The notes beneath the pieces were generated by a model. It made no database searches. It was not told where the DNA came from and worked only from the letters and a program-made list of their open reading frames with translations. 64,000 nucleotides of DNA from assembly GCF_011682145.1 (NCBI RefSeq), contig NZ_WHJH01000040.1, positions 1 through 64,000 of the forward strand, in the 5' to 3' direction. Below are positions 13,297 to 34,808 of this stretch, one piece after another (position 1 is the stretch's first letter; each line of letters begins with the position of its first letter). This DNA is from Massilia mucilaginosa. Its GTDB lineage: Bacteria > Pseudomonadota > Gammaproteobacteria > Burkholderiales > Burkholderiaceae_D. The position numbers were made by a program, and so were the translations under genes.

Positions 13297-14169
13297 CTAC
13301 ATTTCCCTTTTAGGCTCATTGCGGCGGCCGTCGTCGCGCTGGCGTTCATCGCGCTTGGGCTCGTCCTGCCCGGCGCTCTCCTGTCCATTCTTGCCGGACT
13401 GATCTTCTTCCGGCGGCTCCACCGGCTCGTCAGGCTTGTCGGCGGGCGGCTCCGCCTTCTCCGGCTGCGGCTCCGGCTGCGGCTCCTCGGGTGGCGTCAT
13501 GGCCGCCTCGGCAGCCGGTTCCTGGGCTGGCGCTGGCGCTGGCACTGGCGGGGGCGCCATCTGGTCGGCCGGCTTCGCAGCAGCGTCGGCTGGAGGGAAC
13601 AGCGGCGCCGGCTGGCCCGGCTGGCTCTGCCCGGGCACCGTCATCGGCTCCTGCGGCGTCATGGTCAGTGTCGACAAGGTGAACTTCCACTCCGACAGCT
13701 TGCTCTTGTTTTCCATGTTCAGAAAGCGCGCGTCAAAATTGCCGACCTTGAGCGGCGGCGCATCCGACAGGCTGTAGACCCCCAGCACGCCCTGCTTGTC
13801 GCCCACGTACATCACGCCCCATTCGGCCTTGCCGGTGATCGGGTCGACGAAAATCTTGCGCAGGTGGCGCCGGGTGCCGGGAAAGCGCGGGTCCTTGAGC
13901 AGTTCCTGCAAGGTGGGCGGCTGCTGCGGCTGGCCGGGCGGCGTGGCGGCGGCGTAGCTGCGCAGCGCGTCGCTGAAGGCGGCGCCGATGGCGAGCAGTT
14001 CTTCTTCGGCGGCCGCGCGCTGCATGAGCGAGCCGACCTTCAGGCTGGCCGCGCCCACCAGCCCGATCACGGTGACCAGGATGATCAAGCCCAGATAGGT
14101 AAAGCCGTGCGCGCGCGCCAGGCGCGGCGCGGCCCTACCAGTCCTGGTACGGTTTGCCGTTGCGGTCAT
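13297..14169 (-). CDS. Atypical pseudopilin with long Pro/charged tail (last gene of the secretion operon)
   Basis: Protein of 290 residues with a type III signal sequence: a basic leader, then GFTYLGLIILVTVIGL (about 22-37), so prepilin peptidase should cut after Gly22. Position +5 is Gly, not the usual Glu, as in tip pseudopilins of the GspK kind. A globular domain reaches residue 190; the last 100 residues are Pro-, Glu-, Lys- and Arg-rich and probably disordered. The start overlaps the preceding gene by 35 bp; it is the only Met close to the leader. No exact family is recognised. Confidence 0.7.
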   Translation of the reverse strand: MTATANRTRTGRAAPRLARAHGFTYLGLIILVTVIGLVGAASLKVGSLMQRAAAEEELLAIGAAFSDALRSYAAATPPGQPQQPPTLQELLKDPRFPGTRRHLRKIFVDPITGKAEWGVMYVGDKQGVLGVYSLSDAPPLKVGNFDARFLNMENKSKLSEWKFTLSTLTMTPQEPMTVPGQSQPGQPAPLFPPADAAAKPADQMAPPPVPAPAPAQEPAAEAAMTPPEEPQPEPQPEKAEPPADKPDEPVEPPEEDQSGKNGQESAGQDEPKRDERQRDDGRRNEPKREM

Positions 14170-14548
14170 TGCCGGGCGCCCCACTCTTGATGCTGTACAG
14201 ATTGCCCTTGGTGGTGTCTTCGGGCGGCACCAGGATCCAAGTGGTGCTGCTGTCGGCCACCGGGTCCACCGGAATGCTGCGCAGGTATTTTTTCTCGACC
14301 AGCTGTTCCAGCGAATCGGGATAGCGTCCGGTGTCGGCATAGTACTGGTCGATCACGGCGCGCGTGTTGCGCAGGTTGTCGGCCAAAATGGTGTCCTTGG
14401 CGCTGTCGATGCTCGGAAAAAAGCGCGGCACCGCGAGCGTGAGCAGCAGCGCCACAATGCCCAGCACCACCAGCAGTTCGATCAGGGTGAAGCCGCGCGC
14501 CGGGCGGCCTTGGTTTGCTTGTATCCGTGCTTGCATCGTCTTCACCAT
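14135..14548 (-). CDS. GspG/GspH-like pseudopilin
   Basis: Pseudopilin of 137 residues. Prepilin motif GFTLIELLVVLGIVALL begins at about residue 19 with Glu at +5; the mature protein then has the GspG-like core with DTGRYPDSLEQLVEKKYL and a short C-terminal strand region. It should be processed by PilD (not in the window) and polymerise into the periplasmic pseudopilus. Its start overlaps the stop of the gene before it by seven bases. Confidence 0.82.
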   Translation of the reverse strand: MVKTMQARIQANQGRPARGFTLIELLVVLGIVALLLTLAVPRFFPSIDSAKDTILADNLRNTRAVIDQYYADTGRYPDSLEQLVEKKYLRSIPVDPVADSSTTWILVPPEDTTKGNLYSIKSGAPGNDRNGKPYQDW

Positions 14549-15024
14549 TTGCGGTACGGTACATCGTTCAGGCCGACCCGGTCCGAGGTCGAATACACAT
14601 CGTACACGTCCTCGCCTTCGCGCGGGTCAAGGGCCTCGCTGGCGTAGCTGCGCTTGCCCCAGGTCTGGGCCGGATTGACGTCGCCGCTGGCGCTGAAGGG
14701 GTCGCGCGGCACGCGGCGCAGGAAGAATATCTTGGCGCGCGTCGGGCTGCGCACATCGGGCACGCCGTCGACCAGCTGTTCGAGCGACTTCGGGTAGCCG
14801 TTGCTGTTGAGGGCACGCGCGATGCGGCCTTCGTCGTAGGCGCGCTTGTAGGCGTCGATGCCCTGGCGGATCTCGCGCAGCGAGCGGCGCAGCTCCTGCT
14901 CCTGCTGGCGTTGCATCGTCACTTGGGTCACCGGCACCACCAGGGTGCCGAGCAGGGCCAGAATCGCCAGGGTCACCAGCAATTCGATCAGCGTGAAGCC
15001 GCGGCCCCGCCCCTGCGCCATCAT
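14542..15024 (-). CDS. GspG-like pseudopilin
   Basis: Pseudopilin of 160 residues with GFTLIELLVTLAILALL from residue 9 and Glu at +5. Further on it has NGYPKSLEQLVDGVP and RRVPRDPF, typical of GspG-type pseudopilins where the C-terminal loop binds calcium in canonical systems. The start overlaps the secretin stop (ATGA). It is one of four pilin-like proteins of this operon, so it is probably a minor subunit. Confidence 0.83.
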   Translation of the reverse strand: MMAQGRGRGFTLIELLVTLAILALLGTLVVPVTQVTMQRQQEQELRRSLREIRQGIDAYKRAYDEGRIARALNSNGYPKSLEQLVDGVPDVRSPTRAKIFFLRRVPRDPFSASGDVNPAQTWGKRSYASEALDPREGEDVYDVYSTSDRVGLNDVPYRKW

Positions 15025-16991
15025 TGCCGCGGCGCGGGCGTGGTTTCCGGCGCCGGCACCGGGGTGACGGCGGGCGCCGGCGCTTCGGCCGCCGCCGGCG
15101 CAGGTGCCGGTGCCGGTGCCGGTGCGGGTGGGCGCGCGCCGGGCGACGGCGGCATGAGCACCGGCGCGCGCGGCGTGGTGTCCGGACGGCGCCGGAAGCT
15201 GGTCTCGGTGCCGGCGCTGAACTCGGATGCGCTGGCCGGCGGACGGTGGATGTTGCGGATCAGGTGAGGCGTAATCGACAGCACGATCTCGGTGCGGTCG
15301 GCGCCGTCGGCGGTGCGTCCGAACAGGCGCCCCACCACCGGCAGGTTGCCCACGCCGGGAATCTTGGTGCCGCTGCTGCGGTCTTCGTTGTTGATCAGGC
15401 CCGCCAGCACCTGGTTCTCGCCATCCTTCAACTGCAGCATGGTCGACGCTTCGCGGTTGCCGATGCGGTAGGCGGTGGTGCCCGAGGCGGTGGTGATGGT
15501 GTCGAGCAGGCTGCTCACCGTCAGGCCGACGCGGATGCCGATTTCGTTATTCAGATAGATGGTCGGCTCCACGTTCAGGGTCAGGCCGACGTCCAGATAG
15601 GTGATCGATTCCTGCGAAAAGCCGTTCGCCACGCCGCCCGAGGACAAGGTGGTGGTGATGTTCGGGACCTTGTCGCCGATGACGATCTTGGCCTTTTCCT
15701 TGTTGCGCACGCGGATGCGCGGATTGGCCAGGGTGTTCGAGTCGCCGTCGGTCTTGCGCGCTGTGATCGTGGTCGACAGCGACGACAGGCCGATGTCGGC
15801 GCGTCCCAGCCCGCGCACGGTGTCGAGCGTGAGCGGCCCGCCGCCGGGCGTGGTCAGGGGCGCCAGGGTCAGGGTGGTGGGCCAGGAGACGCCCAGTTCC
15901 AGCAGGCGGCTGCGCTTGATCTCCAAAATCTCGACTTCGAGCATGACTTCCGGCTCGGCCACGTCCTGCAGCGCCACCAGCTTGGCGGCCAGCTTGATCG
16001 CTTCCGGGTTGTCGCGCACGATCACCAGATTGAGCTTTTCGTCGATGACCACGTCGCGCGACTTGAGGATGGTCTTGAGCGTGTTGGCCACTACCTTGGC
16101 GTCGGCGTTCGCCAGGAAGAAGGTTTTCACCGTCATCTCCTGGTATTCCTTGAGCTTGGTGGCCACGTTCTGGTACACCAGCAGGGTATTGCCGTCCATG
16201 ATTTGATAGTCCAACTGGTTCGACACCATCAAGTAGTAGATGGCCGCTTCGACCGTGCTGTTTTTCAGGAAGATGGAGGTCTTCTGGTCGGTCTTGACGT
16301 CCTTGTCGAAAATGAAGTTCAGGTTCGAACGGCGCGCGATCACGTCGAGCACCTGCTTGAGCGGAGCGTCGCGGAACTCGATGCTGATCGGCGTCTTGTA
16401 GGCGGCGGCCAGGCCGGTTTCGGCGACCGGCGCGGCGGTGTTTTCGTTTATCTGCAAAAGCAGCCGGCGCGCCGGTTCGTACTGCGGGCGCTCGACCAGG
16501 ATGGCGGCGGCGCGCGCGCGGGCCGGCTCGTATTCCTTGCGCTCGAAGGCGGCCGTCGCTTCTTCCATGGTTTTGGCGTGGCGCTGGTCCATCTCGATCA
16601 GGCGCAGGCCGGCCCTGGCGCGCTCGTTGGCCGGATCGAATCCCAGCACGCGCTGGTAATCCTGCAGCGCCGGGGCGGGCCGGCCGGCGGCCAGCGCGCG
16701 CTCGGCCTGGTCGAGCAGGCGCGTGGCGGCGCGGTCGCGCGCGCGCAGGTAGGCGGCGCGGAAGACCGGGTTTTCGGGCTCGGCGTCGATCGCCTGGCGG
16801 TACTTGATCAGGCCCGCCTCGACTTCATCCTTCTCGACCAGCGAATTGCCTTCGAGGTAAGCGGCGCGCCCGGCGCAGCCGGACAGCGCCAGCAGCATCA
16901 GTGGCACCATCAGCGGAACGGCAGCGGCGCGCGCAAGGCGGCGCCAGGGTGGCAAATTCAGGCAACGTGTGCCAATCCGGTGGCTAGCCAT
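15021..16991 (-). CDS. Lipoprotein secretin with TPR-like N-terminal domain (GspD/MshL-like)
   Basis: Outer-membrane channel of the secretion machine; 656 residues. A lipoprotein signal (LALSGC, Cys39) precedes TPR-like helices (about 40-200), a secretin/TonB short N-terminal domain (YKTPISIEFRDAPLKQVLDV onward), an N1 domain with VIDEKLNLVIVRDNPEAI, and the secretin core ending with IPGVGNLPVVGRLFG and EIVLSITPHLIRN. The C-terminal 60 residues are Pro/Ala-rich. The lipid anchor suggests no separate pilotin is needed. The start overlaps the PilP-like stop by one base (TGATG). Confidence 0.92.
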   Translation of the reverse strand: MASHRIGTRCLNLPPWRRLARAAAVPLMVPLMLLALSGCAGRAAYLEGNSLVEKDEVEAGLIKYRQAIDAEPENPVFRAAYLRARDRAATRLLDQAERALAAGRPAPALQDYQRVLGFDPANERARAGLRLIEMDQRHAKTMEEATAAFERKEYEPARARAAAILVERPQYEPARRLLLQINENTAAPVAETGLAAAYKTPISIEFRDAPLKQVLDVIARRSNLNFIFDKDVKTDQKTSIFLKNSTVEAAIYYLMVSNQLDYQIMDGNTLLVYQNVATKLKEYQEMTVKTFFLANADAKVVANTLKTILKSRDVVIDEKLNLVIVRDNPEAIKLAAKLVALQDVAEPEVMLEVEILEIKRSRLLELGVSWPTTLTLAPLTTPGGGPLTLDTVRGLGRADIGLSSLSTTITARKTDGDSNTLANPRIRVRNKEKAKIVIGDKVPNITTTLSSGGVANGFSQESITYLDVGLTLNVEPTIYLNNEIGIRVGLTVSSLLDTITTASGTTAYRIGNREASTMLQLKDGENQVLAGLINNEDRSSGTKIPGVGNLPVVGRLFGRTADGADRTEIVLSITPHLIRNIHRPPASASEFSAGTETSFRRRPDTTPRAPVLMPPSPGARPPAPAPAPAPAPAAAEAPAPAVTPVPAPETTPAPRQ

Positions 16992-17527
16992 CAGTCGAAG
17001 ACTCCAATGTTGAGCTGTTGAACCTGGTTCAAAGGCAGATAGGTCAAGGTCAGCGTGGGCGGCGCGATCGCGTCCACCCGGTACACGCCGTCGATCACCA
17101 TCTTGTTACGTACGATATAGGTCTTGTCGCCGCGCGCGAGGAAGACTTCCCACGCGCCCTCGCCGACCGCCTTGCCGATGTAGACGAAGGGCAGCGGCGG
17201 CGCGCTTGGCGGCGGCGGGGGCGGTGGCGGCGCGTTGTCGACCGCCGCCGCCGGCGGCGCCGGGTTCAGGTTCTGGCTGCCGAACACGCCGGCCCCGAAG
17301 GCGTCGTCATCGCCGATCAGGGTGTCGCGCGCGGCCAGGCGCAGGATCGCCGGTTCGGCCGGCGCGGCGACAGCATTGGCGACGCTACTGGTGCGGGTCA
17401 CGACGGCCTTCGGCGCGCTGCGTTCGACCGCTTCGGCCACATCCGGCTCGGGCTTGTTGTCGCCAAAAATGAGCAGGCCGGCGGCCAGCAGCACGGCCGC
17501 GCCCATGGCGAGGTGGCGCGGGGTCAT
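16991..17527 (-). CDS. PilP/GspC-like periplasmic connector protein
   Basis: Protein of 178 residues with one N-terminal membrane helix (about 5-22), a low-complexity linker containing a run of eight prolines, and a C-terminal beta domain (FVYIGKAVGEGAWEVFLARG onward) of the HR/PilP kind. In related machines this domain docks the inner-membrane platform to the secretin N0 domain, which fits its place directly before the secretin gene. Start at 17,527 overlaps the preceding stop (ATGA). Homology is inferred from domain layout, not from a strong motif. Confidence 0.68.
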   Translation of the reverse strand: MTPRHLAMGAAVLLAAGLLIFGDNKPEPDVAEAVERSAPKAVVTRTSSVANAVAAPAEPAILRLAARDTLIGDDDAFGAGVFGSQNLNPAPPAAAVDNAPPPPPPPPSAPPLPFVYIGKAVGEGAWEVFLARGDKTYIVRNKMVIDGVYRVDAIAPPTLTLTYLPLNQVQQLNIGVFD

Positions 17528-18090
17528 TGCGGCGCTCCCGGCACGTCTTGCAGGTAAAAGGTCATGCGCACGCGCGCTTCGAGCACCGGCTCGCCGAGGT
17601 TGTCGCGCTTGAAGCTGATTTCGTCGAGCGAGGCGAAGGGAATCGCGCGCAGCGACAGGATGGTGAACTTCCAGATGGCGCCGTAGCTGCCCTTGACCGG
17701 CAAGGTCACTTGATAGGTGTGCAGGCGCGCGTTGCGGTCGTAGCCGGCCTTGTAGTCGCCCTGCGAGAGCGACAGGCCGCTCTTGGCGGCGATCCCGAAC
17801 AGGGTCTTGACCTGCTGCTCGGCGTAGCGCTTTTCGCCCAGGGTGGCGTAGAACAGGGCCAGGTTTTCGTTGGCGATGACCGGCGCCGGCTTGTCGAGCG
17901 CCGGCGGCATGCGCGCCAGGCCGAGCGCGACGGCGTGGCGCTGCGCTTGCAGCGCGCCTTGCGGCAGCAGCCAGATGACGGCGGCGCCGCCGGCCAGCAG
18001 CAGCACGCAGGCGCCGCAAAAAAACGGCCCCCGAGCGGCCACGGCCAGGCGCGCGCGCAGCGCCATCCTTGCGACGGTCGGCGCGCTCAT
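17524..18090 (-). CDS. PilO-like platform protein
   Basis: Protein of 188 residues with a single N-terminal membrane helix (about 22-43), a short helical stretch, and a C-terminal alpha/beta (ferredoxin-like) domain ending YLQDVPGAPQ. This is the PilO/GspM topology: the periplasmic part pairs with the PilN-like partner and connects to the PilP-like protein. It overlaps both neighbours by four bases, so the three proteins are probably made in fixed ratio. Confidence 0.68.
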   Translation of the reverse strand: MSAPTVARMALRARLAVAARGPFFCGACVLLLAGGAAVIWLLPQGALQAQRHAVALGLARMPPALDKPAPVIANENLALFYATLGEKRYAEQQVKTLFGIAAKSGLSLSQGDYKAGYDRNARLHTYQVTLPVKGSYGAIWKFTILSLRAIPFASLDEISFKRDNLGEPVLEARVRMTFYLQDVPGAPQ

Positions 18091-18632
18091 GGCGCCACCC
18101 ATTCGGCTTCGAGCTGGAAGCGGATTGGCTTGTTGGGGTCCTGCTCGTTGATTTCGTGGCGGATCAGGGTCACGCCGGCGAACAGTTCCTCGCGTTTGAG
18201 CAGTTCGACGTATTCGATCATGGCATCGCTGCTTTTCGCTTCGGCGGTGATTTTCAGGCTGCGTTTGCGCGCGTCCGGTTCCAGCGCCAGCATGCCGATG
18301 GCGGGCGGCGTGGCGGCGGCGATGGCGTCGTACAGGGCGCGCCACGGCAGGTTCAGTTGCATGACGGCCGCGTTCACGCCGGCCGCCTGCGCTTCGGAAA
18401 TGCGCGGGCCTTGCGCCACAGGCGCCACCACCACGGGGGCGCGCGAGCGCAGGCGCGCCGCGTTCAGTTGTTCGGTGTCGGCGCGCTGCTGCGCCACCAG
18501 GCGCCAGCCCAGGGTGGCGGCGGCCGCGCACAGGGCCAGCCCGAGCACGGCCACGGCCCAGGTGCCGGGGCCGGCGCGGTGCAGGGTGCGCTGCATGGAG
18601 GGCGGCGCAAAATCGATGTGCACACGTTTCAT
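18087..18632 (-). CDS. PilN-like platform protein
   Basis: Protein of 181 residues: short cytoplasmic head (MKRVHIDFAPPS, like the PilM-binding N-terminus of PilN), one membrane helix (about 24-46), then a periplasmic helix and a ferredoxin-like domain. The N-terminal peptide fits binding to the PilM-like protein encoded just upstream. The start overlaps the PilM-like stop (ATGA). The call rests on topology and gene order. Confidence 0.68.
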   Translation of the reverse strand: MKRVHIDFAPPSMQRTLHRAGPGTWAVAVLGLALCAAAATLGWRLVAQQRADTEQLNAARLRSRAPVVVAPVAQGPRISEAQAAGVNAAVMQLNLPWRALYDAIAAATPPAIGMLALEPDARKRSLKITAEAKSSDAMIEYVELLKREELFAGVTLIRHEINEQDPNKPIRFQLEAEWVAP

Positions 18633-19441
18633 AACCGGCTCCCGGTTGCGGCCAGGCGCGCGCAGTCGGACCAGCCCACGCCCTGCCCTTGCCCCAGCAA
18701 ATGGCAGCTGAGTGCGGGGTGGGTGGCGCCCTTGCTCCAGGCGGCGGGCGCGTGGCCCGATACGCACAGGCGCGCCGGCACCGAGACATTCAGGCGCAGC
18801 GCTTCGCGCGCCACATGCGCGGCCAGCCAGTCAAGATCGGCGTCCTCGGGCAGCGCGGCAGCGCGCACGGCGCGGATCGACCCGTCCTCGATGGCGGCCA
18901 GGCTCAAGACGCGCTGCTGCACCAGGCCATACCAGGCGCCGCTCTTGACAGAGCCGCGCCACTGGTTGAACCCGGCGACGAATTGCGGCACCAGTTGCAC
19001 CAGCGGCGCGCGCTGGGCGGCGCACACCTGTTCGATCAGCGCCAGCAGGTGGCGCGGCAGCGCGGCGACCAGGAACGGCTGCGCCGCATCCCAGCCGGCG
19101 GCCAGCTGCCAGGCGCCGGTCGGCTCGCCGAACAAGGTTTGAAAGCGCAGCGCGGCGGCGGCCTCCAGGTCGGCCAGGCGCGCGCTGCCCGCGGGCGGCG
19201 CCACCTGCCAGATGCGCACCAGTTCATCGGCCAGCACGATGGTGACGGGCCAGTTGGCGCTGCCGGCGCCTTCGAGCAGCAGGCGCAAGGCGCCGGCGAT
19301 CGACTCGGGGTGGCTGCCGCCATCGAACGCCAGTTCGGCCACCAGCTCGGGCGAAGCGCTGCCGAAACGGCTGGTTTTGAGGAGCGCGACGGCGCCGGGC
19401 GCGATGCCGACCCGCAGCGATTGTCCGAAGCGTCTACGCAT
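18629..19441 (-). CDS. PilM/GspL-like cytoplasmic platform protein
   Basis: Soluble protein of 270 residues without membrane helices, of the actin-like PilM/MshI type (RVGIAPGAVALLK near the N-terminus is a degenerate phosphate-1 strand). In type IV pili PilM recruits the ATPase and binds PilN. Its start overlaps the gspE stop by eight bases. Actin-fold nucleotide motifs are weak, so nucleotide binding may be lost. Confidence 0.65.
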   Translation of the reverse strand: MRRRFGQSLRVGIAPGAVALLKTSRFGSASPELVAELAFDGGSHPESIAGALRLLLEGAGSANWPVTIVLADELVRIWQVAPPAGSARLADLEAAAALRFQTLFGEPTGAWQLAAGWDAAQPFLVAALPRHLLALIEQVCAAQRAPLVQLVPQFVAGFNQWRGSVKSGAWYGLVQQRVLSLAAIEDGSIRAVRAAALPEDADLDWLAAHVAREALRLNVSVPARLCVSGHAPAAWSKGATHPALSCHLLGQGQGVGWSDCARLAATGSRL

Positions 19442-21131
19442 GCAGGGTCACCCGCTTGATTTCGGTGAGCGTGGTGGCGCCGCGCTTGACCAGGTCGAGC
19501 GCGGCCAGGCGCAGGCTGCGGGTGCCGTTGGCGTGGGCCGCGGCCTTGATCTGGCGGATCGGGCGCTTGTCGACGATCAGTTCACGGATCTCGTCGTTGA
19601 GGGTGAGGATTTCGGCGATCGAACGGCGCCCCTTGTAACCGGTGCCGCGGCAATCGCCGCAGCCCTTGCCCTGCATGAAAAGGTAGTCGTGCACGTCGGC
19701 GCGTTCCAGGTTGACCGCATCGAGTTCGGCGTCGCTCGGGGTGAATTGTTCCGCGCAGTGCGGGCAGTTCATGCGCACCAGGCGCTGGGCCCAGATGCCG
19801 TTGAGCGCCGACACGAAGGCGTAGGGATCGATGCCCATGTGGGTAAAGCGGCCGAACACGTCGAACACATTGTTGGCGTGGACGGTGGTGAGCACCAGGT
19901 GGCCGGTCAGGGCCGACTGCACCGCGATTTCGGCGGTTTCGCGGTCGCGGATTTCGCCGACCATGATCTTGTCGGGGTCGTGGCGCAGGATCGAGCGCAA
20001 GCCCTTGGCAAAGGTCAGGCCCTTCTTTTCGTTGACCGGAATTTGCAGGATGCCGGGCAGCTGGTATTCGACCGGGTCTTCGATGGTGATGATCTTTTCG
20101 CGCCCGTTGTGGATTTCGGTCAGGGCCGCGTACAGGGTCGTGGTCTTGCCCGAACCGGTCGGCCCGGTCACCAGCAGCATGCCGTAGGCTTCCTGCGCCA
20201 GCATGCGCAAGGACACCAGCGAGGCCGCGTCGAAGCCCAGCGCCTCCAGGGTGAGCGCGCCGTAGGCTTCGATCATGGCGCGCTTGTCGAGGATCCGGAT
20301 GACCGCGTCCTCGCCGTGGATGCTCGGCATGATCGAGACGCGCAGGTCGATCTCGCGTCCGCCCGACTCGACCCGGAAGCTGCCGTCCTGCGGCACGCGG
20401 CGTTCGGCGATATCGAGTTCGGCCAGCACTTTCAGGCGCGAGATGATGTGCTCGGCCACTTCGATGCCGCCCACCGAGGTGGCGTGATCGAGCACGCCAT
20501 CGACCCGGTACTTGACGGCCAGGCCGCCGGCGGTGCTCTCCAGATGGATGTCGGATGCGCCGGCCTTGAGCGCGTCGTACAGGGTCGAGTTGACCAGCTT
20601 GACAGCCGGGCTGGCGGCCTCGGACACCGAGGCGAACGACAGCACGGCGGCGGTCTTGCCGTCGCGCCGGGCGTCGCCCACGTTGGCCACCAGGGTGTCG
20701 ACCGCGCGCGCCGATTCTTCCTGCTTGGACAGGTAGGCCTGGATATCGGCTTGCAGCGCCAGGCGCACATTGAGCGGCGCGCCTGGGGTGGCGCGCGCGC
20801 GGGTAGCAAGCCAGGTTTGCAGGTCGACGTCGAAGGGGTCGGCGATCACGCCGAGCACCTGGCCGCCGGGCTCGCGCAGCAGCACGCAGTGGCGCGCCAG
20901 CGCCTGCGCCAGCGGCAGCAGGTCGAAGGCGGTTGCGCAGCCGAGCATCTCGGCCGTTTCCATCACGCTCAAGCCGAAGGGCTCGGCCAGGGCCTGGACG
21001 ATCTGGCGCGCATCGAGGCCGCTGGCCGCCTCCAGTTCGGCCACCAGCGAGCGCTGCGTGTGCAGGCTCTGGGCGCGCGCGCGCGCCAGCAGGGCCGGGT
21101 CGAGAATGGGAGACGGCACGGCGGAACTCAC
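19434..21131 (-). CDS. gspE: Type II secretion/type IV pilus assembly ATPase GspE
   Basis: Hexameric motor of the secretion machine; 565 residues from a GTG start at 21,131 that overlaps the gspF stop (GTGA). N-terminal MshEN/GspE_N domain (1-140), then the ATPase with Walker A GPTGSGKT (323-330), the Asp box EDPVEYQLPG, Walker B DKIMVGEIRD (387-396), a His box with HAN, and a zinc-binding CPHC...CGDC tetracysteine (456, 459, 491, 494). The frame stays open far upstream through gspF, but only this start gives a normal GspE length. Confidence 0.94.
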   Translation of the reverse strand: MSSAVPSPILDPALLARARAQSLHTQRSLVAELEAASGLDARQIVQALAEPFGLSVMETAEMLGCATAFDLLPLAQALARHCVLLREPGGQVLGVIADPFDVDLQTWLATRARATPGAPLNVRLALQADIQAYLSKQEESARAVDTLVANVGDARRDGKTAAVLSFASVSEAASPAVKLVNSTLYDALKAGASDIHLESTAGGLAVKYRVDGVLDHATSVGGIEVAEHIISRLKVLAELDIAERRVPQDGSFRVESGGREIDLRVSIMPSIHGEDAVIRILDKRAMIEAYGALTLEALGFDAASLVSLRMLAQEAYGMLLVTGPTGSGKTTTLYAALTEIHNGREKIITIEDPVEYQLPGILQIPVNEKKGLTFAKGLRSILRHDPDKIMVGEIRDRETAEIAVQSALTGHLVLTTVHANNVFDVFGRFTHMGIDPYAFVSALNGIWAQRLVRMNCPHCAEQFTPSDAELDAVNLERADVHDYLFMQGKGCGDCRGTGYKGRRSIAEILTLNDEIRELIVDKRPIRQIKAAAHANGTRSLRLAALDLVKRGATTLTEIKRVTLHA

Positions 21132-22315
21132 GACATGTCTCCGGCCAGATCGAAAATCGGCATATACAGCAGCACCACAATGGCGCCGACGACCAGCCCG
21201 ATGGCGGCCATCAGCAGGGGTTCGAAAGTACGGGTGAAGCGGTCGATCCAGCGGCTGATTTCGCCGTCGTAAAAGGCCGCCGACTGGGTCAGCATCGGCC
21301 CCATGTCGCCGGTGCGCTCGCCCACCCGCAGCATGCGCAGCGAGATCGGGGTGGTCAGGCTGTTGGCCTCGAACGCGGTCGAGAGCGGCAGGCCCGACTC
21401 GATGCTGGTGCGCGCCGCGCCCAAGGAAGCGCGCATCGAGCTTGATACCATCGCCTGCACGGTGTCGATGGCGTTGACGATGGTGATACCGCCTTCGCTG
21501 AGCATGCCGAGCGTGAGGTACAGGCGCGAGAGTTCGTAAATGCGCACCCGTTCGCCGATGCCGGGCAGGCGCGTGACCAGGCGCGCCAGGCCGCCGTTGC
21601 GGGTCAGGCGCCGCCACAGCAGCACCAGCGCGCCCGCCAGCACGGCCAGGCCGCCCAGCAGCAGGCCGCTGTGGCCGCTGGCGAACTGGCCCCAGCCGAG
21701 CAGCATCTGCGACATCCACGGCAGGTTGCGTCCGGCGCCCTGGTAGACCTCGGCAAAGCGCGGCACCACGTAGGTAATCAGGAACATGCTCACGCCGCCG
21801 CCGACTGCCAGCAGGATCACCGGATAAATGGCGGCGCTGACGATCTTGCTGCGCACCACGTCGATGCGCTGCTGGTAATCGATGTAGCGCGCGAGCGAAC
21901 GCGGCAGGTCGCTGGTGCCTTCGGCGGCGCGCACGATGCCGATGTAGAGCGGCGAAAACAGGTCCGGCTGGTCGGCCAGCACGCTGGAAAAGCGTTTGCC
22001 TTCGCGCAAGCCGCCGAGCAGGCGTTCGAGCACGCTGCGGGTCGAGACGCTGGTTTCTTTTTCGAGCAGGGCTTCGAGCGCTTCGACGATGCCCAGGCCC
22101 GCCGTCAGCAAGGCCAGCAGTTCCTGGCTGAACAGCACCAGCGACAGACCTGGGCCGCGACCGCGGCGCAGGCCGGCGGCGCGCACCGGTTCGACCGCGC
22201 TGACGAACAGCCCGCGTGCTTCGCACTGGCGGCGGGCATCGGCCTCATCCTGGGCGTCGACCACCTGGCTGCTAATGCTCAGGTCAGGCGCGAGGGTACG
22301 GACAGCAAACTGCAT
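21128..22315 (-). CDS. gspF: Type II secretion inner-membrane platform protein GspF
   Basis: Polytopic membrane core of the machine, 395 residues. Two GspF domains are visible (about 60-190 and 260-390) with the duplicated pattern FSQELLALLTAGLGIVEALE / YLTLGMLSEGGITIVNAID, and three long hydrophobic helices near 160-190, 215-240 and the C-terminus. GspF couples ATPase rotation to pseudopilin extraction. It lies between gspG (41-bp gap) and gspE (overlap). Confidence 0.94.
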   Translation of the reverse strand: MQFAVRTLAPDLSISSQVVDAQDEADARRQCEARGLFVSAVEPVRAAGLRRGRGPGLSLVLFSQELLALLTAGLGIVEALEALLEKETSVSTRSVLERLLGGLREGKRFSSVLADQPDLFSPLYIGIVRAAEGTSDLPRSLARYIDYQQRIDVVRSKIVSAAIYPVILLAVGGGVSMFLITYVVPRFAEVYQGAGRNLPWMSQMLLGWGQFASGHSGLLLGGLAVLAGALVLLWRRLTRNGGLARLVTRLPGIGERVRIYELSRLYLTLGMLSEGGITIVNAIDTVQAMVSSSMRASLGAARTSIESGLPLSTAFEANSLTTPISLRMLRVGERTGDMGPMLTQSAAFYDGEISRWIDRFTRTFEPLLMAAIGLVVGAIVVLLYMPIFDLAGDMS

Positions 22316-22356
22316 GAGGCCTTTGCGGGGAAAGGGAAAACTGCGGGGTCAGGAAA

Positions 22357-22800
22357 CTATTGGGACGTGATGTCGGCGTTTTCGCCGGTGCCGCCGGGCT
22401 GGCCGTCCTTGCCGGTCGAGACGATTTCGTAGTCGCCCTTGGTGCCTGGCGCGCGGTACTGGTATGGGCGGCCCCACGGATCCTGCGGCACCGCTTTTTT
22501 GAGGTAGGGACCATTCCACTTGACGCCGGCGGTGGCGGGCGCGACCAGCAAGGCGGCCATGCCTTCTTCGGTGGTCGGGTAGCGGCCGACGTCGAGGCGG
22601 TAGGTGTCGAGCGACTTTTCGAACGCTTCGATCTGGGCCTTGGCGACGGTGACTTCGGACTTGCCGAGCTGGGCGAAATACTTCGGCCCCACGTAAGCGG
22701 CGAGCAAGCCGATGATGACGATAACGACGAGTAATTCAAGCAGGGTGAAGCCCGCAGGGCGCGTGCGCCGGGAGTGGTTGATTTTCGTTACTGCAAACAT
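22357..22800 (-). CDS. gspG: Major pseudopilin GspG
   Basis: First gene of the secretion operon; 147 residues. Leader ending in Gly, then FTLLELLVVIVIIGLLAAYV with Glu at +5, followed by VGPKYFAQLGKSEVTVAKAQ and the GspG signature GRYPTTEEGMAALL, WNGPYLKK, PQDPWGRPYQYR. A ribosome binding site (AGGAGT) lies nine bases before the ATG. GspG forms the pseudopilus shaft. Promoter must lie in the 230 bp upstream (22,801-23,032). Confidence 0.95.
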   Translation of the reverse strand: MFAVTKINHSRRTRPAGFTLLELLVVIVIIGLLAAYVGPKYFAQLGKSEVTVAKAQIEAFEKSLDTYRLDVGRYPTTEEGMAALLVAPATAGVKWNGPYLKKAVPQDPWGRPYQYRAPGTKGDYEIVSTGKDGQPGGTGENADITSQ

Positions 22801-23032: not shown

Positions 23033-23659
23033 TTAGCGCGCCGCCTTGCCGCTGCGGCGACGGACGAAGGCAACCAGGCCCAGGCCGGTCATGACCAGCA
23101 GCAGGTCCGATGGTTCCGGCACCGAGGTCGGTGGCAGCAGCGGGGTCACCGTCACGATGCGGGTCGGGTTGTCGACATCGACCACGCCTGGCGGAGTCAG
23201 CTGGAACTCGACCAGATTACCGTTGCCGCCGTAGTATTCGCCAGTGTCGAGGTCAACCAGCGCCACGCCGAACAGGGCGCCAAAGCTTCCCGCGACGGTC
23301 TCGAAGTCGCCACGGAAATGGACATCGAAACCGAAAATACCACCAAGAACGACCGACTGCATCAGATAATTGTCCGCGCCGCTGTTAGCGAAGGTGACCA
23401 AGCCAGGAATATCGCCCAGAACACTACCCCCACGGAGAATCTCGTCTTCGAAGGCACCGCTGAAGTTGGTGACATCGGCAAACGCCGAGGTGGCCGCTTG
23501 CACGCTGTTGAAGCTGAAATACATGGCCCCGCCATTGCCAACAAATTTGCTGGAGTCAATGGAAACGTGATAACTCGGACCAGCCCATGCCGCAGTGGCG
23601 CCCAACGCGAACGTTACGGCGAGCAATGCTTTCGTGATAATTTTTTTGATATCGAACAT
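23033..23659 (-). CDS. PEP-CTERM sorting-domain protein
   Basis: Exported protein of 208 residues with an N-terminal signal peptide ending near AWA (about 27) and a C-terminal PEP-CTERM signal: VPEP, a hydrophobic helix of about 18 residues, and a basic RRR end. Exosortase should cut at the PEP motif and release or anchor the protein at the cell surface. The middle (about 150 residues) is beta-rich, low in charge, and of unknown function. It follows the nuclease gene by 10 bp, with its AAGGGAAG ribosome binding site overlapping the nuclease stop, so the two are one operon. Confidence 0.9.
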   Translation of the reverse strand: MFDIKKIITKALLAVTFALGATAAWAGPSYHVSIDSSKFVGNGGAMYFSFNSVQAATSAFADVTNFSGAFEDEILRGGSVLGDIPGLVTFANSGADNYLMQSVVLGGIFGFDVHFRGDFETVAGSFGALFGVALVDLDTGEYYGGNGNLVEFQLTPPGVVDVDNPTRIVTVTPLLPPTSVPEPSDLLLVMTGLGLVAFVRRRSGKAAR

Positions 23660-23669
23660 TCTTCTTCCC

Positions 23670-26600
23670 TTAGAGTGAACCACTTAAAATTTTCGTGACG
23701 AAACCAACGCCTTTACGGGCGGGACTGCTATACACAACGGAAAGGGTGACTTTGGCGCCAACTGGTATTGTACCATTGCTAACAGTCATATATGGCTCAG
23801 TTCCCAACATTCCAGTCCGTGTAGCAACAGTTACGCCCGGAGTCAGTGACGAAAATACAACATGGAGCGGTCCGGTGATTGGCGCGTCGCTATTGTTTGT
23901 GATAGTCAGGGTGCCGCTGTAGGTATTTTTGAAAATATCCACGCGCAAGCCCGAACCGCTGACGCCGAAACTGGCGGTGACGTCGGCATAGGCCGGCGCC
24001 AGGTTCAGCGCCACCACCACCGGATCGTGATCCGAGGAACGGAACGCGTCATTCTTGAACAGGGCCTGGGCGGCGCTGCTCTTGGCGTCGGTGTTGTAGT
24101 CGATCACGGTCGGCTCATCCGCATTGGTATGCCATTCGGTGGCGCCGATGACCTGGGCGTCGAGCGAGGTGCTGGCCAGCGCATGGTCGAGGTAGCCGCT
24201 CTCGCCGTCGAAGACGTAGGAGTAAGGAATGCCGCCCGGACGCACGAAGCGCTCCAGCTGGTTGACCAGGCCGGCCTGGTTGAGCAGGTGGATCGGATCT
24301 TCGAAGCCGTGCGCATTCATGTCGCCGATGACCAGCACGTCCGGGTCGCCCGCGCTTGCCACCACTTGCGGAATGAAATAGCTGGCCAGGCGCTGCGCCT
24401 GCAGCACGCGGGTGGCGTTATTGCAGCTCTGGCCATCGCCCAGGTCGGCGTTGGCGCCGGAACCGCAGCCGCCCTTCGACTTGAGGTGGTTGACGATCAC
24501 CGAAAACTTCGCGCCGTTGGCGGCCTTGAAGGTCTGCGCCATCGGCGGACGGTTGTTGACGGCATCGCCGTCGGACAGCGCGCCGCCGGCCGGGCTGACC
24601 TTGGCCGGCTTGTAGATCATCGCCACGCGAATCGCATCGGTGCCGGTGGTGGCCGGCTTGGGCACGTAAGCATAGGTCTCGAAGCCGGTGGCCGCGTTGA
24701 GCTGCCTGACCAGGTAGTCGACCGCGATGTCGTCGTTGTTCTGGATTTCCATCAAGCCCACCACATCGGCGTCGATGGCTTTCAGTTCATTGACGATCTT
24801 GTCGCGCTGGCGCACGAATTCGACCATGTTGTCGGCGCCACGGCAATTCGATGGACGCGTGGTCGAACCGACCTTGCAGCCCTGCCCCGTGCGGCCCCAG
24901 GCGTCGGCGCCGTCGAGGAAGGTGGTGAAGAAGTTGAGCACGTTGGCGCTGGCCACCTTGACGTTGCCAACCGGCAGTTCCGGTGCCGCCAGGCGCGAAT
25001 TGCTGCGTGTGAACGACGGCGCCATGGTCGGCTGGATCTTGAAGGCTGTGCGGCCGCCCCCGATGGCGCCGAAGTCGACCACGCCGACCAGGTTGCCGAC
25101 GGTATCGCCGGCGCGCACCGTGCCATCCTGGCCCAGGTAGGGAATGCCCGAGCAGGCCACCACATCCGCGCACGGCGGGGTGGCGGCCGGCGGGGTGATG
25201 AACCAGCTGTCGTCGAGCACCAGTTCGTTGCTCGCGTTCGATGCCGCCAGCGCCAGCGCTTCCGGCGTGCCCGGACGGAAACGGTTGGTCGCGGTTTCGC
25301 GGCGTCCCACCGACAGGGTCAGCTCGCCACGGTCGCCCAGGTAATTGGTCTGGTTGACGGTCAGGACATTGCTGATATTGACCAGCATTGCCTCGTAACG
25401 CGCCAGGTCCGTGCCCGGCACGAAAGTGATGTTGGCGGGCGTGACGCTGTTGCCGCTGCCGAGCACATCGGTGCCGGTGATGTCTTTCATTTCAGTGTAG
25501 GTGCGCAGCGCGCCGGTCGGCTTGTACTCGACGATGGTGCCTTTCACGCGCACCAGGTCGCCCACGGCCAGCGTTGGCGCGGTGCTGGTGAAGACGAACA
25601 GGCCGTCCGATGTGGCCGGATCGCCGTCGCCGTTGGCATCCTGGATGAAATAGCCGTTCGACACCTTGTGGGTGACCACGCCTTCGGTGCTCACGCTGAC
25701 ATTGGCGAACGGACTGGCCGCGCCGGCGCCCTGGATTTGCGGGATGGTGGCCGCGCCCGAGACGCTGACATTGACCGGGCAAGTCGCTTCCTGGCCGGCA
25801 TTGTTAGTAAAACGAATCACCAGCGGATAGCTGCCCGAGGCCAGGCTTGCCGCCGCCTGCAGGTTGACGTTGGCGGATGCGCCGTTGGCGGAGGCCGCCG
25901 TCAGGCTGCCCAGGCTGATGCCGGGCACGGCGCCGCTGGCGATGACGGCGCCATTGACGATGCTGTCTTCATCCGAGGCGCGCAGCAAGAGCGCGCCCGG
26001 CTTGCCCTGTTCGATGGCCAGGCTGGCCGGGCAGACCGGCACGATCGGCTTGGCTTGCGGCACGGTGGCGCCGCAGGTATTGCGGGCCGAGGCGCTGGTG
26101 CGCGGGGCCGGCGCGGCGGTGGCGAAGTCGACGCTGTTGTCGTCGGTATCGGCGCAGCCGCCATTGGCGCGGAACAAGGCCAGCGAGGCCGACATGGCCG
26201 GTGCGCGCGTGCCTTCGGCGCCGTTGGCGGTGCCGAAGCCGACCAGGTCGGCGATGTTGTCACCGCTCGGGGTGGCGCCGCTGAGGGTCGCGGTATCGCG
26301 CACCAGCGCGACTTTGCCGGTGGTTCCCGACATGTTAAACCCGCTTTGCGGCACGATGACCGGGGTTGGCAGTGAAGGCTGGCCCGAGCCGCCGCTCTGC
26401 TGCTGGATCAGGACGTACTGGCCCGGCTCGACGGTGAAGGTCGGCAGGGCCGACTTGCCGCTCCAGGCGCCCGTGCTGGTGGCCGAGCCGTACTGGAGGC
26501 TCCACCCTTCGGCGGTGACCGGGGCACTGCCGCGGTTGAAGATTTCGATGTAGTCGTTGGTAAAGAAAGTGGTGTTGGCGTTACCACCAGCGCCGTACAC

Positions 26601-26717
26601 CTGGCTGATCACGAGGTCGGGCGAGACCGCCATGGCGGGTGAGGCAAAACCGGCCATCAGTGCGGCCAGCACGGTCAGCCGGCCGGGAACGTGAATGGTT
26701 GCTACGGGCTTTTTCAT
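23670..26717 (-). CDS. ExeM/NucH-family extracellular endonuclease
   Basis: Large secreted nuclease of 1015 residues. Order: signal peptide (about 1-30), lamin-tail domain (about 32-170, ISQVYGAGGNANTTFFTNDYIE), a beta-rich linker, an OB-fold region with YFIQDANGDGDPATSDGLFV and VKGTIVEY, then an endonuclease/exonuclease/phosphatase domain with VGLMEIQNND, NHLKSKGG, IGDMNAHGFEDPI, LDHAL and SSDHDPVVV, and a C-terminal Ig-like module. All metal and catalytic residues seem present. Start at 26,717 follows AGGAAG. No C-terminal anchor is seen, unlike Shewanella ExeM. It likely degrades extracellular DNA and may be cargo of the adjacent secretion system (inference). Confidence 0.92.
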   Translation of the reverse strand: MKKPVATIHVPGRLTVLAALMAGFASPAMAVSPDLVISQVYGAGGNANTTFFTNDYIEIFNRGSAPVTAEGWSLQYGSATSTGAWSGKSALPTFTVEPGQYVLIQQQSGGSGQPSLPTPVIVPQSGFNMSGTTGKVALVRDTATLSGATPSGDNIADLVGFGTANGAEGTRAPAMSASLALFRANGGCADTDDNSVDFATAAPAPRTSASARNTCGATVPQAKPIVPVCPASLAIEQGKPGALLLRASDEDSIVNGAVIASGAVPGISLGSLTAASANGASANVNLQAAASLASGSYPLVIRFTNNAGQEATCPVNVSVSGAATIPQIQGAGAASPFANVSVSTEGVVTHKVSNGYFIQDANGDGDPATSDGLFVFTSTAPTLAVGDLVRVKGTIVEYKPTGALRTYTEMKDITGTDVLGSGNSVTPANITFVPGTDLARYEAMLVNISNVLTVNQTNYLGDRGELTLSVGRRETATNRFRPGTPEALALAASNASNELVLDDSWFITPPAATPPCADVVACSGIPYLGQDGTVRAGDTVGNLVGVVDFGAIGGGRTAFKIQPTMAPSFTRSNSRLAAPELPVGNVKVASANVLNFFTTFLDGADAWGRTGQGCKVGSTTRPSNCRGADNMVEFVRQRDKIVNELKAIDADVVGLMEIQNNDDIAVDYLVRQLNAATGFETYAYVPKPATTGTDAIRVAMIYKPAKVSPAGGALSDGDAVNNRPPMAQTFKAANGAKFSVIVNHLKSKGGCGSGANADLGDGQSCNNATRVLQAQRLASYFIPQVVASAGDPDVLVIGDMNAHGFEDPIHLLNQAGLVNQLERFVRPGGIPYSYVFDGESGYLDHALASTSLDAQVIGATEWHTNADEPTVIDYNTDAKSSAAQALFKNDAFRSSDHDPVVVALNLAPAYADVTASFGVSGSGLRVDIFKNTYSGTLTITNNSDAPITGPLHVVFSSLTPGVTVATRTGMLGTEPYMTVSNGTIPVGAKVTLSVVYSSPARKGVGFVTKILSGSL

Positions 26718-27160
26718 CGAAACTTCCTGAAGGGAGTAGAGTGGAATCGGCATTGTCATGCCGACTACGGACGTTGATGTTCTATGTTAGCAAAAAGTAT
26801 TCTTCCATAGTAAATTTCATCATAGTTGTGATAAATGACAACATGATGACAGTGCACTGCCGCGCCGGCATGCGGCGCGCCCCGGTGGAAGGACGAGTCG
26901 GCCCGTGGACAGCGCACGCCGTCGCGATGAGGCGCGAGCCTGATTAACGCAAGCGCCGGGCCTTGGCATGATGCAGGGCCGCCTCGGTCCCGCGCGGGCG
27001 CTGCGCGATCGAGGTACAGCCGCATGCCGGCACAGGAAGCGGCCGGCAGGACCGACAGTGCGCCCAGTCCCATGAACAAGCAGCGCACAGCGCGGCCGGC
27101 AAACCGGCTGCATGGAGGCGGCGTACCGATCGCGCGCAGCGGCCCCGTGGCACCAGGCGC
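26718..27160. promoter_or_regulatory. Intergenic region upstream of the nuclease gene
   Basis: About 440 bp without a convincing gene. The first 110 bp (26,750-26,860) are strongly AT-rich and must contain the nuclease promoter; I could not pick a reliable -35/-10 pair. The rest is GC-rich, and several frames are open for 75-110 codons, none protein-like. No terminator of the TIGR03790 gene is evident. Confidence 0.35.
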
Positions 27161-28183
27161 TCAGCGTCCATACGGCGCCGCCAGCGGCTCGCCGATGAAC
27201 AGGCCCTGGGTCGGCCAGGCCACGCTGCGCCAGTACGCTTCGATGGCGGTGCTGCCGTTCAGGTAATGCTTGAGCAGGACGCCGGGATGGGGAAATTTTT
27301 GCCAGTGGTTGCAGGGCTCGCTGACGCTGCCATAGCTGGCCGTCGCGCCCGCTTCCAGCCAGCGCAGGCTGCTCATCTGGCTGGTGCCGTACAGGTCGCC
27401 GCCGAAGGAGGTCAGGTGGTCGGCCAGCGCGCCCGGCAGAAATTTGACGCTGTCGAGCTTGTCGACCCTCGCGGTGCCGGTCTGGTACACCATGATGTCG
27501 CTCACACCGTCGAGTGCGTCGCTATGCAGGGTTTTGGTGCGGATCTTCCTGGCGGCGATCTGTCCGTCGCGCGGAAACAGCTCGGCCCGCGAATTGCGCG
27601 CCGCCTGCGAGGTGACCAGATAATACGCGCTGGCGTTCGGCACGCGAAAACCGCTCGCCACGCCACGGTCGATCAGGGCCTTGGCCTGCGCCACCGAGTC
27701 GGTCGGCAGCAGCATCGACAGGCGCATGCGGAAGTCGGCCAGCGGCTGGACCGAGCTGGCGTTGAAGTAGGCGCTGGGGCGGCTGGCGGCGCAGGTGTTG
27801 CTGCACTGGCCGGCGTCGAAACCCATGCTGTAGGCGGCCGTGATGGCGTTGCACTCGACGGCATAGGGCGCGGTCCAGACCATCAGCACGGCTTCGATGC
27901 CGGGCGGAAGCTGGCTGTCGATGCTGTCTTTCAGGGCGCTGAAGCGGGCGGCGTCGAGCCGCTGCGGCTTGCCGGGAATATTCACGTGAATGACGTTGGC
28001 GGCCGGAATGCCGCGCGCCTTGCGGTAGTACGCGGCAATGGCCACGCTGTTCGGTTCGGCGGCGTTGACGACCAGCGCCAGCTGGCTGGGCCGCAGACGT
28101 GGCGCCGAGGCGCCCTGGGCGCCAGCCTGGCCGATGGCGCCGCCGAGGGCAAGGGTCAGGAACAGTGCTGCGCGCAGGGTCAT
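27161..28183 (-). CDS. TIGR03790-family exported protein
   Basis: Secreted protein of 340 residues with a signal peptide (about 1-22). It matches the layout of the TIGR03790 family: LALVVNAAEPNSVAIAAYYR near the N-terminus, GIPAANVIHVNIP, then MVWTAPYAVECNAITAAYSMGFD and FGGDLYGTSQMSSLRWLEAGATASYG. As I recall, that family is confined to genomes that carry exosortases; its function is unknown. Start at 28,183 is the Met that begins the signal peptide. It follows a small lipoprotein gene by 47 bp, probably the same transcript. Confidence 0.85.
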   Translation of the reverse strand: MTLRAALFLTLALGGAIGQAGAQGASAPRLRPSQLALVVNAAEPNSVAIAAYYRKARGIPAANVIHVNIPGKPQRLDAARFSALKDSIDSQLPPGIEAVLMVWTAPYAVECNAITAAYSMGFDAGQCSNTCAASRPSAYFNASSVQPLADFRMRLSMLLPTDSVAQAKALIDRGVASGFRVPNASAYYLVTSQAARNSRAELFPRDGQIAARKIRTKTLHSDALDGVSDIMVYQTGTARVDKLDSVKFLPGALADHLTSFGGDLYGTSQMSSLRWLEAGATASYGSVSEPCNHWQKFPHPGVLLKHYLNGSTAIEAYWRSVAWPTQGLFIGEPLAAPYGR

Positions 28184-28230
28184 GGAATCGCCAGGTCGGT
28201 TAGGCGGGACCGCTTGCCCCGCAGCGCCGA

Positions 28231-28674
28231 TTATAGCGCCTGGCCGGCCGGCGCCGCGGCCGCGACGGGCTGGGTGGCAATGCACTCGGCTGGCCGGGCC
28301 GGGTCGGGCGCGGGATCGCAGGCCGGCTGCGCGGGCGGATTTCCCGCCGGGCCCTGCTCGCGCAGATGCTCGGGACGCTCTAGCGCGCGGCGCCGCACTT
28401 CCAGGGAGAAGGCCTGCTCGTAGGGAACCATGCGCAGCTGTTCGGCTTCGCGCTCGGCCGTGCTGACCGCTGGCGCGCTGCGCACGGCAGCGGCGCCCTG
28501 CACCGTGCTGGTATTGGTGTACGTGGCCGGGGTGGCCGGAGCTTGCTGGACTGCGGAAGCGGAACTGGTCTGAACGGTGATCGTCTCGGTGCCGATCGGC
28601 TCTCCACCCCCGCAAGCGGTCAGTGCAACGAGTCCGGCGCAAAGGATGGCGCGGTTGAATACGTTAAAAAACAT
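28231..28674 (-). CDS. Small lipoprotein of unknown function
   Basis: Predicted lipoprotein of 147 residues: signal peptide with lipobox LTAC (Cys21) followed by GGGEPIG. The remainder is rich in Ala, Pro, Gln and Thr, with one charged helical stretch (STAEREAEQLRMVPYEQAFS) and four Cys residues in total. A GAGGAAGT box just before the ATG supports the start. It precedes the TIGR03790 gene in an apparent two-gene operon, so it may be its partner. No family recognised. Confidence 0.7.
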   Translation of the reverse strand: MFFNVFNRAILCAGLVALTACGGGEPIGTETITVQTSSASAVQQAPATPATYTNTSTVQGAAAVRSAPAVSTAEREAEQLRMVPYEQAFSLEVRRRALERPEHLREQGPAGNPPAQPACDPAPDPARPAECIATQPVAAAAPAGQAL

Positions 28675-32784: not shown

Positions 32785-33527
32785 CTACTGGCCCTGCGGC
32801 AAGCTGCGCGCGAGGCTCATGCGATTAAACAGAATGCCGACCGGCAGCAGCACCAGCTGGTCGTCGAACTCGCCCCCGGGCGCCAGCGGATCGCGGCCCA
32901 GCGGGCGCTCGATGAAAGTGGCGACGGCGAGCGCATTGAAGCGCTCATCGGCATTCGTGGTGGACGTGTCCGGCTGGCGCACGCCGGCTACACTGATGCC
33001 GCCATGCTCGCGCCCGTACGAAAACACCACGGCGGCGCCGCACTGGGTCGCCATCGAACACACGGGCGCGCCCACCTGGCGCACCAGCTGGCCGCCGCTG
33101 CGCGTGACGATCGACTTGGTGCCGAAGACCACGGTGGGCTGGATCGGCGCCGTGCTCATGGCCGGCGTGACGCTGTAGCGCAGCAGCTTGCCCCAGCCGT
33201 CGCCGGGCGCGATGCCCAGCGTAACCCAGGGCAGCAAGCCGCTGCAGCGCTCTTCGCTGTCGCAGCGGCCGTCGAACTCGCGTCCGCCGCCATCGTCCAG
33301 CGCCGGGCGCGGCAGGCGCCCGTTGACCACCGCAAAGCCGATCAGCGCTTCGCGCGCCTGGGCCAGCGCGGTCCGGCTGCGCTGGTCCGGGCCGGACTGG
33401 GTATCGGTCTTGCCGATGCCCGACATCAGCAGCGATGCCGCGCCGAGGCCAACCACGGCCAGCATCAGCAGCAAGGCGGCGCCGTGCTGGCGTACTCTTG
33501 CCTTGCGCCGCCCTGCCAGCACGCCCT

Positions 33528-33540: not shown

Positions 33541-34808
<1,268 letters not shown>

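What the first reader, a model, noticed from the sequence alone, without database searches (positions are those of the whole stretch)
13297..22800. Type II secretion / type IV pilus hybrid machine in one coupled operon
GspE, GspF and GspG-type parts are combined with a PilM-N-O-P-like platform, a lipoprotein secretin with TPR-like domain (MshL-like) and three extra pseudopilins. There is no GspC/L/M set, no PilT and no prepilin peptidase. Eight of nine junctions overlap. It is not the standard Gsp cluster and may be a dedicated exporter for surface or matrix proteins.
Basis: partly seen in the sequence, partly recalled or inferred. Interest (0 to 1): 0.65.

Follow-up and report, generated by a model that had tools for sequence, protein, structure and literature searches.

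The report
Unorthodox type II protein export operon
This is an 11-gene protein-export machine, a little-studied cousin of the standard type II secretion system that is widespread in betaproteobacteria; it probably ships enzymes out of the cell and tends to occur in genomes that also carry the PEP-CTERM surface-protein sorting system.

Summary
The operon is real: 11 genes, 9 of 10 junctions overlapping. It is not the standard Gsp cluster, but it is no one-off hybrid. It belongs to a betaproteobacterial family already in print as the "unorthodox T2SS" of Ralstonia and the second gsp cluster of Cupriavidus metallidurans. The same 11 gene types are at the C. metallidurans locus. Its pp1 pseudopilin occurs in 144 of 399 genomes of the order. 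The window's genome holds three copies beside a canonical T2SS and T4aP and MSHA-type loci. GspE and the secretin form clades of their own. The fourth pilin lacks Glu+5 in 175 of 175 motifs read, as the tip pseudopilin GspK does (recalled). Most likely job: type II export of folded exoproteins.

New lead: exosortase is present in 103 of 144 genomes with the family and 62 of 255 without it (OR 7.8); for canonical GspL the OR is only 1.7. The link holds within the window's own taxonomic family (OR 6.6). So PEP-CTERM cargo may cross the outer membrane through this machine. That is not shown, and 41 of the 144 genomes lack a detected exosortase.

The parts
22357..22800 (-). gspG, major pseudopilin
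   Evidence: TIGR01710 177.4 bits, cut-off 88.85; PF08334
21128..22315 (-). gspF, inner-membrane platform protein
   Evidence: PF00482; TIGR02120 245 bits, below its 424 cut-off
19434..21131 (-). gspE, assembly ATPase of a separate clade
   Evidence: PF00437; below both GspE and PilB equivalog cut-offs; tree
18629..19441 (-). pilM-like actin-fold cytoplasmic protein
   Evidence: AlphaFold pLDDT 92.9; Foldseek PilM 5eox E 6e-12, EpsL cytoplasmic domain 1yf5 E 1e-10
18087..18632 (-). pilN-like platform protein
   Evidence: PF05137 22.5 bits, cut-off 22.8
17524..18090 (-). pilO-like platform protein
   Evidence: profile matches PDB PilO 3jc8, E 3.7e-6
16991..17527 (-). pilP/GspC-HR-like protein, N-terminal helix plus C-terminal beta domain
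   Evidence: model pLDDT 75; Foldseek PilP 2y4y and GspC 3oss, prob 1.00, E 0.05-0.06
15021..16991 (-). lipoprotein secretin
   Evidence: PF00263, PF03958, PF07660; lipobox-like motif in 177 of 186 family members; own clade
14542..15024 (-). pp1, minor pseudopilin with Glu+5
   Evidence: N_methyl; Glu+5 in 179 of 180 motifs read
14135..14548 (-). pp2, minor pseudopilin with Glu+5
   Evidence: N_methyl; Glu+5 in 167 of 167 motifs read
13297..14169 (-). pp3, pseudopilin lacking Glu+5, GspK-like tip candidate
   Evidence: no Glu at +5 in 175 of 175 motifs read; no Pfam hit
23033..23683 (-). PEP-CTERM protein (NF038129), neighbour and possible cargo
   Evidence: a hairpin with a T run in the printed intergenic sequence makes co-transcription with gspG unlikely
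23670..26759 (-). ExeM/NucH extracellular nuclease, neighbour and candidate cargo
   Evidence: NF033681 535 bits, cut-off 300

Best explanation
An unorthodox type II secretion system that exports proteins already folded in the periplasm. GspE drives GspF to assemble a short pseudopilus of GspG with a pp1/pp2/pp3 tip (pp3 standing in for GspK). The pilins would be matured by the one prepilin peptidase encoded elsewhere. The split PilM-N-O-P platform does the work of GspL-M-C and connects to a self-piloting lipoprotein secretin. In this genome three paralogues coexist with a canonical T2SS, each beside a different exoenzyme. The window copy may export the adjacent ExeM nuclease. Shown: gene content, conservation, separate clades, Glu+5 pattern. 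Inferred: that it secretes, its cargo, and the use of the C222 peptidase.
For: GspG meets the T2SS equivalog cut-off. The E+/E+/no-E pseudopilin pattern is constant. Platform folds or profiles match PilM/GspL, PilO and PilP/GspC. One A24 peptidase hit in the genome. Operon conserved. Neighbours: M4 protease and pectate lyases at the two paralogues and ExeM in the window. In the 80-locus Massilia-group set, 70 loci have upstream operon genes; 36 have an S8 subtilase, 24 ExeM, none both. M4 neighbours occur in two separate GspE clades. Other copies sit by GH18 chitinases, astacins, an M60 protease and a multicopper oxidase. Precedent: the Geobacteraceae Pul system, with three pseudopilins, is reported to be required for secretion of the multicopper oxidase OmpB (passages).
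Against: No secretion experiment. Two controls did not separate near from far genes: a blind sample gave exoenzyme domains in 5 of 20 near and 4 of 20 far secreted-looking clusters, and a crude signal-peptide count gave 67 of 204 non-Massilia sides and 42 of 147 Massilia sides against 4 of 13 canonical T2SS sides (3 of 13 canonical loci dropped for lack of gspE). The Massilia-group loci share ancestry and are not independent. Many copies have no obvious exoenzyme beside them. Kinship to the Geobacter system was not tested by sequence.
Confidence: 0.75

Rival explanations
1. Its main cargo are PEP-CTERM proteins: exosortase-processed proteins leave the inner membrane and cross the outer membrane through this machine, as GlyGly-CTERM and MYXO-CTERM proteins are reported to use the T2SS.
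For: Co-occurrence with exosortase in 399 genomes: 103/41/62/193, OR 7.8, p 2.8e-20; canonical GspL OR 1.7, p 0.013. Genus level 50/16/21/71, OR 10.6. Without GspL OR 14, with GspL OR 3.7; 27 of 165 exosortase genomes have neither machine. Within the window's family 31/7/26/39, OR 6.6, p 3.9e-5. Distance to an exosortase gene under 50 kb in 9 of 25 same-contig pairs, and in 14 of 17 same-family genomes with a same-contig pair. PEP-CTERM genes within 1 kb: 51 of 204 neighbours in the Massilia set versus 1 of 438 downstream genes further out. Haft 2006, Table 2, lists a T2SS E protein, NE1609, as 34th best match to the PEP-CTERM profile, with RSp0148 and GSU1783 among its homologues (passages). 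Analogy: passages in PMC11980579.
Against: 41 of 144 carriers lack a detected exosortase and 62 exosortase genomes lack the family. Outside the Massilia set PEP-CTERM adjacency is weak: 11 of 271 genes within 1 kb, 9 of 687 further out. Of 0 PEP-CTERM tags among 117 members of eight exoenzyme/RHS neighbour clusters, none supports direct tagging. No shared RpoN box: 1 of 164 operons versus 4 of 444 control genes. Shared lifestyle or genome completeness could drive part of it; no species tree was available. My PEP-CTERM pattern also found 0 in 211 kb of own-genome control loci where about 2 are expected, so that control is uninformative.
Confidence: 0.3
2. It builds a surface pilus (MSHA- or T4aP-like) rather than a secretion pseudopilus.
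For: Split PilM/N/O/P-type platform; weak MshEN domain on GspE; in the PilQ-rooted secretin tree the family pairs with the two MshL rows at SH-aLRT 99, under a long-branch warning.
Against: GspG passes the T2SS equivalog cut-off; MshL, PilQ and PilB cut-offs are all missed. No retraction ATPase among the 11 genes. pp3 lacks Glu+5 like GspK. Separate T4aP and MSHA-type loci exist.
Confidence: 0.12
3. It is simply the general secretion system of its lineage.
For: 81 of 144 carriers have no GspL detected by PF05134.
Against: 63 of 144 carriers, the window's genome included, also have GspL; several genomes hold two to four copies, including this one with three.
Confidence: 0.2

Closest known systems
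Unorthodox T2SS of the Ralstonia solanacearum species complex
   Same: Seven core gsp genes with four hypothetical genes between gspE and gspD in one of the two clusters; coexists with an orthodox T2SS; one cluster next to an rhs gene (passages).
   Different: Ralstonia sequences were not compared here; the cited passages report presence/absence and association with host range, not cargo.
Second gsp cluster of Cupriavidus metallidurans CH34 (Rmet_4704-4713)
   Same: Described as gspD, gspEFG, two extra gspG copies and four conserved hypotheticals (passages). The CH34 replicon stretch found with the window's GspE holds all 11 gene types in order.
   Different: 54% identity of GspE; a multicopper oxidase lies 1.7 kb downstream; no locus tags were shown for the stretch, so the match to Rmet_4704-4713 is inferred.
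Geobacteraceae Pul/Oxp atypical T2SS
   Same: Second T2SS with three pseudopilins (PulG, OxpG, TklG) reported as required for OmpB secretion (passages).
   Different: Kinship rests on a homologue list in Haft 2006, not on a comparison made here.
Canonical T2SS (Gsp)
   Same: GspE, F, G and secretin; GspG passes the equivalog cut-off; a pseudopilin without Glu+5.
   Different: No Pfam GspC/L/M/K; GspE and secretin below cut-off and outside the sampled T2SS clade.
MSHA and T4aP pili
   Same: PilM/N/O/P-type parts.
   Different: MshL, PilQ and PilB cut-offs missed; separate such loci in the same genome pass theirs.

Membership tests
Canonical T2SS | GspE over the TIGR02533 cut-off | tested here: not met
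   488.5 bits against 630.25; the C358 copy scores 702
Canonical T2SS | GspD over the TIGR02517 cut-off | tested here: not met
   143.5 bits against 351.35
Canonical T2SS | GspG over the TIGR01710 cut-off | tested here: met
   177.4 bits against 88.85
Canonical T2SS | GspC, GspL, GspM by sequence family | tested here: not met
   no such Pfam hit among the M/N/O/P-like proteins at E<=0.1; the genome's one PF05134 hit is on C358
Canonical T2SS | GspE and secretin inside the T2SS clade | tested here: not met
   family and T2SS are separate sides of supported branches, 100 and 98 for GspE, 100 and 100 for the secretin; quick trees, few references
Canonical T2SS | one pseudopilin without Glu+5 (GspK-like) | tested here: met
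   pp3 in 175 of 175 motifs read, 8 of 183 had no motif
Unorthodox T2SS of Betaproteobacteria | gspEFG and gspD, extra gspG-like genes, and four other genes between gspE and gspD | tested here: met
   window order; same 11 types in the C. metallidurans stretch; description from passages
Unorthodox T2SS of Betaproteobacteria | sequence kinship with the Ralstonia clusters | not tested
   no Ralstonia sequence was fetched
T4aP | PilB and PilQ over cut-off | tested here: not met
   467 against 676 and 145 against 284 bits
MSHA | MshL over cut-off | tested here: not met
   97 against 250 bits
Any type II secretion system | exports proteins across the outer membrane | not testable with these tools
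   needs a mutant secretome

The most novel reading that the evidence does not exclude
The unorthodox T2SS is the preferred outer-membrane exit for exosortase/PEP-CTERM cargo in Betaproteobacteria, with the canonical T2SS as fallback. It would complete a rule that each C-terminal sorting tag with an intramembrane protease (GlyGly-CTERM, MYXO-CTERM, PEP-CTERM) is paired with a type II machine.
Probability: 0.3. Interest if true: 0.8.

Novelty: new member of a known kind. Interest (0 to 1): 0.52.

Why it matters
A machine found in about a third of sampled genomes of the order (144 of 399) is, in the passages I saw, described only as an unorthodox or atypical T2SS, and no cargo is given for the betaproteobacterial form. 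If the exosortase link is causal, it makes an open question testable: how PEP-CTERM proteins get from the inner membrane to the cell surface and matrix. The pattern gives a concrete prediction: either type II machine can serve, and the unorthodox one is favoured.

Tried and rejected
RpoN -24/-12 box upstream of the operon as a link to the PEP-CTERM regulon: 1 of 164 versus 4 of 444 controls, rejected.

A shared C-terminal export domain: the last 100 residues of the window ExeM matched only members of its own cluster in the loci file.

Enrichment of exoenzymes beside the family in general: two controls showed no difference, so the cargo-next-door claim is kept only for recurrent lineages. In the blind sample, 3 of the 20 near clusters are judged by a representative scanned earlier or later.

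Sequence-only profile comparison of the PilM-like protein with the genome's own PilM, GspL and MshI (single sequences): no hit; structure was used instead.

OxpG as a literature term gave mostly unrelated papers. PMC9765573 had none of the terms sought.

MshL-like secretin and MSHA membership: rejected on cut-offs.
Full report
What is there. The window holds an 11-gene minus-strand operon, gspG-gspF-gspE-M-N-O-P-secretin-pp1-pp2-pp3, at 13297-22800, with 9 of 10 junctions overlapping. Family searches support GspG, GspF, GspE, PilN (just under cut-off), the secretin and N-methylation pilins. The O-like protein matches PDB PilO by profile. The M-like model (pLDDT 92.9) matches PilM and the GspL cytoplasmic domain. 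The P-like domain matches PilP and the GspC HR domain, at prob 1.00 but E about 0.05.

Where it belongs. The window GspE falls below both the GspE and PilB cut-offs and the secretin below those of GspD, PilQ and MshL, while GspG passes as a T2SS major pseudopilin. In quick maximum-likelihood trees the family is one side of a fully supported branch for GspE (32 of 48 rows) and the secretin (28 of 41 rows), separate from ten T2SS rows and from the MSHA and T4aP rows. The references are few (mostly Burkholderiales, one E. coli) and both trees carry long-branch warnings. pp1 and pp2 keep Glu+5 (179 of 180 and 167 of 167 motifs) while pp3 has none in 175 motifs, the pattern I recall for GspK.

Distribution. 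A pp1 profile finds the family in 134 of 294 genomes of the window's taxonomic family, in 144 of 399 of its order, 66 of 158 genera, and in 8 of 398 of the phylum, all 8 in the same order. The window's relatives by secretin are Massilia aquatica (95%) and M. frigida (87%). Own genome: copies on C344, C22 and C111, a canonical T2SS on C358, and loci that pass PilB, PilQ and MshL cut-offs.

Already in print. Passages describe two unorthodox T2SS in R. solanacearum and a second gsp cluster in C. metallidurans with four hypotheticals. [quoted passage not shown] SLT transglycosylases neighbour 10 of the loci here. In the Denise 2019 passages I saw, systems were sorted into T2SS, T4aP, MSH and so on, with 884 left generic; I did not see this type named there.

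Cargo. The C22 copy lies 22 bp from an M4 protease and the C111 copy encloses two pectate lyases. The window copy has ExeM and a PEP-CTERM gene upstream, but a hairpin with a T run lies between them and gspG (sequence printed). Among 70 Massilia-group loci with upstream operon genes, 36 have an S8 subtilase, 24 ExeM, none both; downstream, 71 of 80 have the MurJ-like gene. M4 neighbours occur in 14 loci, 13 distinct, in two separate GspE clades. Other copies have GH18, astacin, M60, GH2, a multicopper oxidase or RHS neighbours. Against this, two general controls found no enrichment: exoenzyme domains in 5 of 20 near versus 4 of 20 far clusters, and secreted-looking large neighbours on 67 of 204 non-Massilia and 42 of 147 Massilia sides versus 4 of 13 canonical sides.

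The exosortase link. In the same 399 genomes exosortase is present in 103 of 144 with the family and 62 of 255 without (OR 7.8, p 2.8e-20); for GspL the OR is 1.7, and the family and GspL are independent (OR 1.3, p 0.24). At genus level the OR is 10.6. Where GspL is absent the OR is 14, where present 3.7; GspL itself tracks exosortase only where the family is absent (OR 2.8 versus 0.75). Within the window's family the OR is 6.6 over 103 genomes, taking these to be handles G000-G102. Physical distance is under 50 kb in 9 of 25 same-contig pairs from capped lists. In the window, XrtB (50060-51667, 411 bits over 275) lies in an EPS locus with EpsE, F, G and D. Haft 2006 Table 2 lists a T2SS E protein as 34th best match to the PEP-CTERM profile in Nitrosomonas; that it belongs to this family is inferred from its homologue list. 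Searches showed me no paper joining this machine to PEP-CTERM export, though one passage says PepA is probably secreted via a type II system. The tests use genomes, not independent events, and PF05134 may miss divergent GspL.

Verdict. A member of a known but little-studied type II variety; type II export likely, cargo partly guessed. The exosortase association is the part worth following.

Noticed in passing
L160 (J. lividum EIF2 plasmid), L158 (B. ambifaria plasmid), L161 (Eleftheria): RHS-repeat proteins, some paired with FG-GAP, IPT/TIG or Ig-like proteins, lie beside family copies on plasmids; the RHS cluster touches 9 loci. A Ralstonia copy is also reported next to rhsB.
   Followed up: partly
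window 32785-33582 (-): 265-aa protein with a pilin-like N-terminus (my reading) inside the sugar-nucleotide/EPS stretch, no NCBIfam hit at E<=1e-5.
   Followed up: no
L034 7139-9469 (-), L035, L160, L161: Some family secretins are longer at the C-terminus, and PGAP names two of them cohesin domain-containing proteins.
   Followed up: no
G000 contigs C360, C222, C244, C333: The genome has 20 T2SSE-domain and 12 secretin hits, including two MshL loci and a TfpB-type ATPase.
   Followed up: partly
window 27161-28642 (-): TIGR03790 family protein of unknown function upstream of the ExeM gene.
   Followed up: no
L157, L215, L180: Multicopper oxidase genes within about 4 kb of three copies, recalling OmpB of the Geobacter system.
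   Followed up: no
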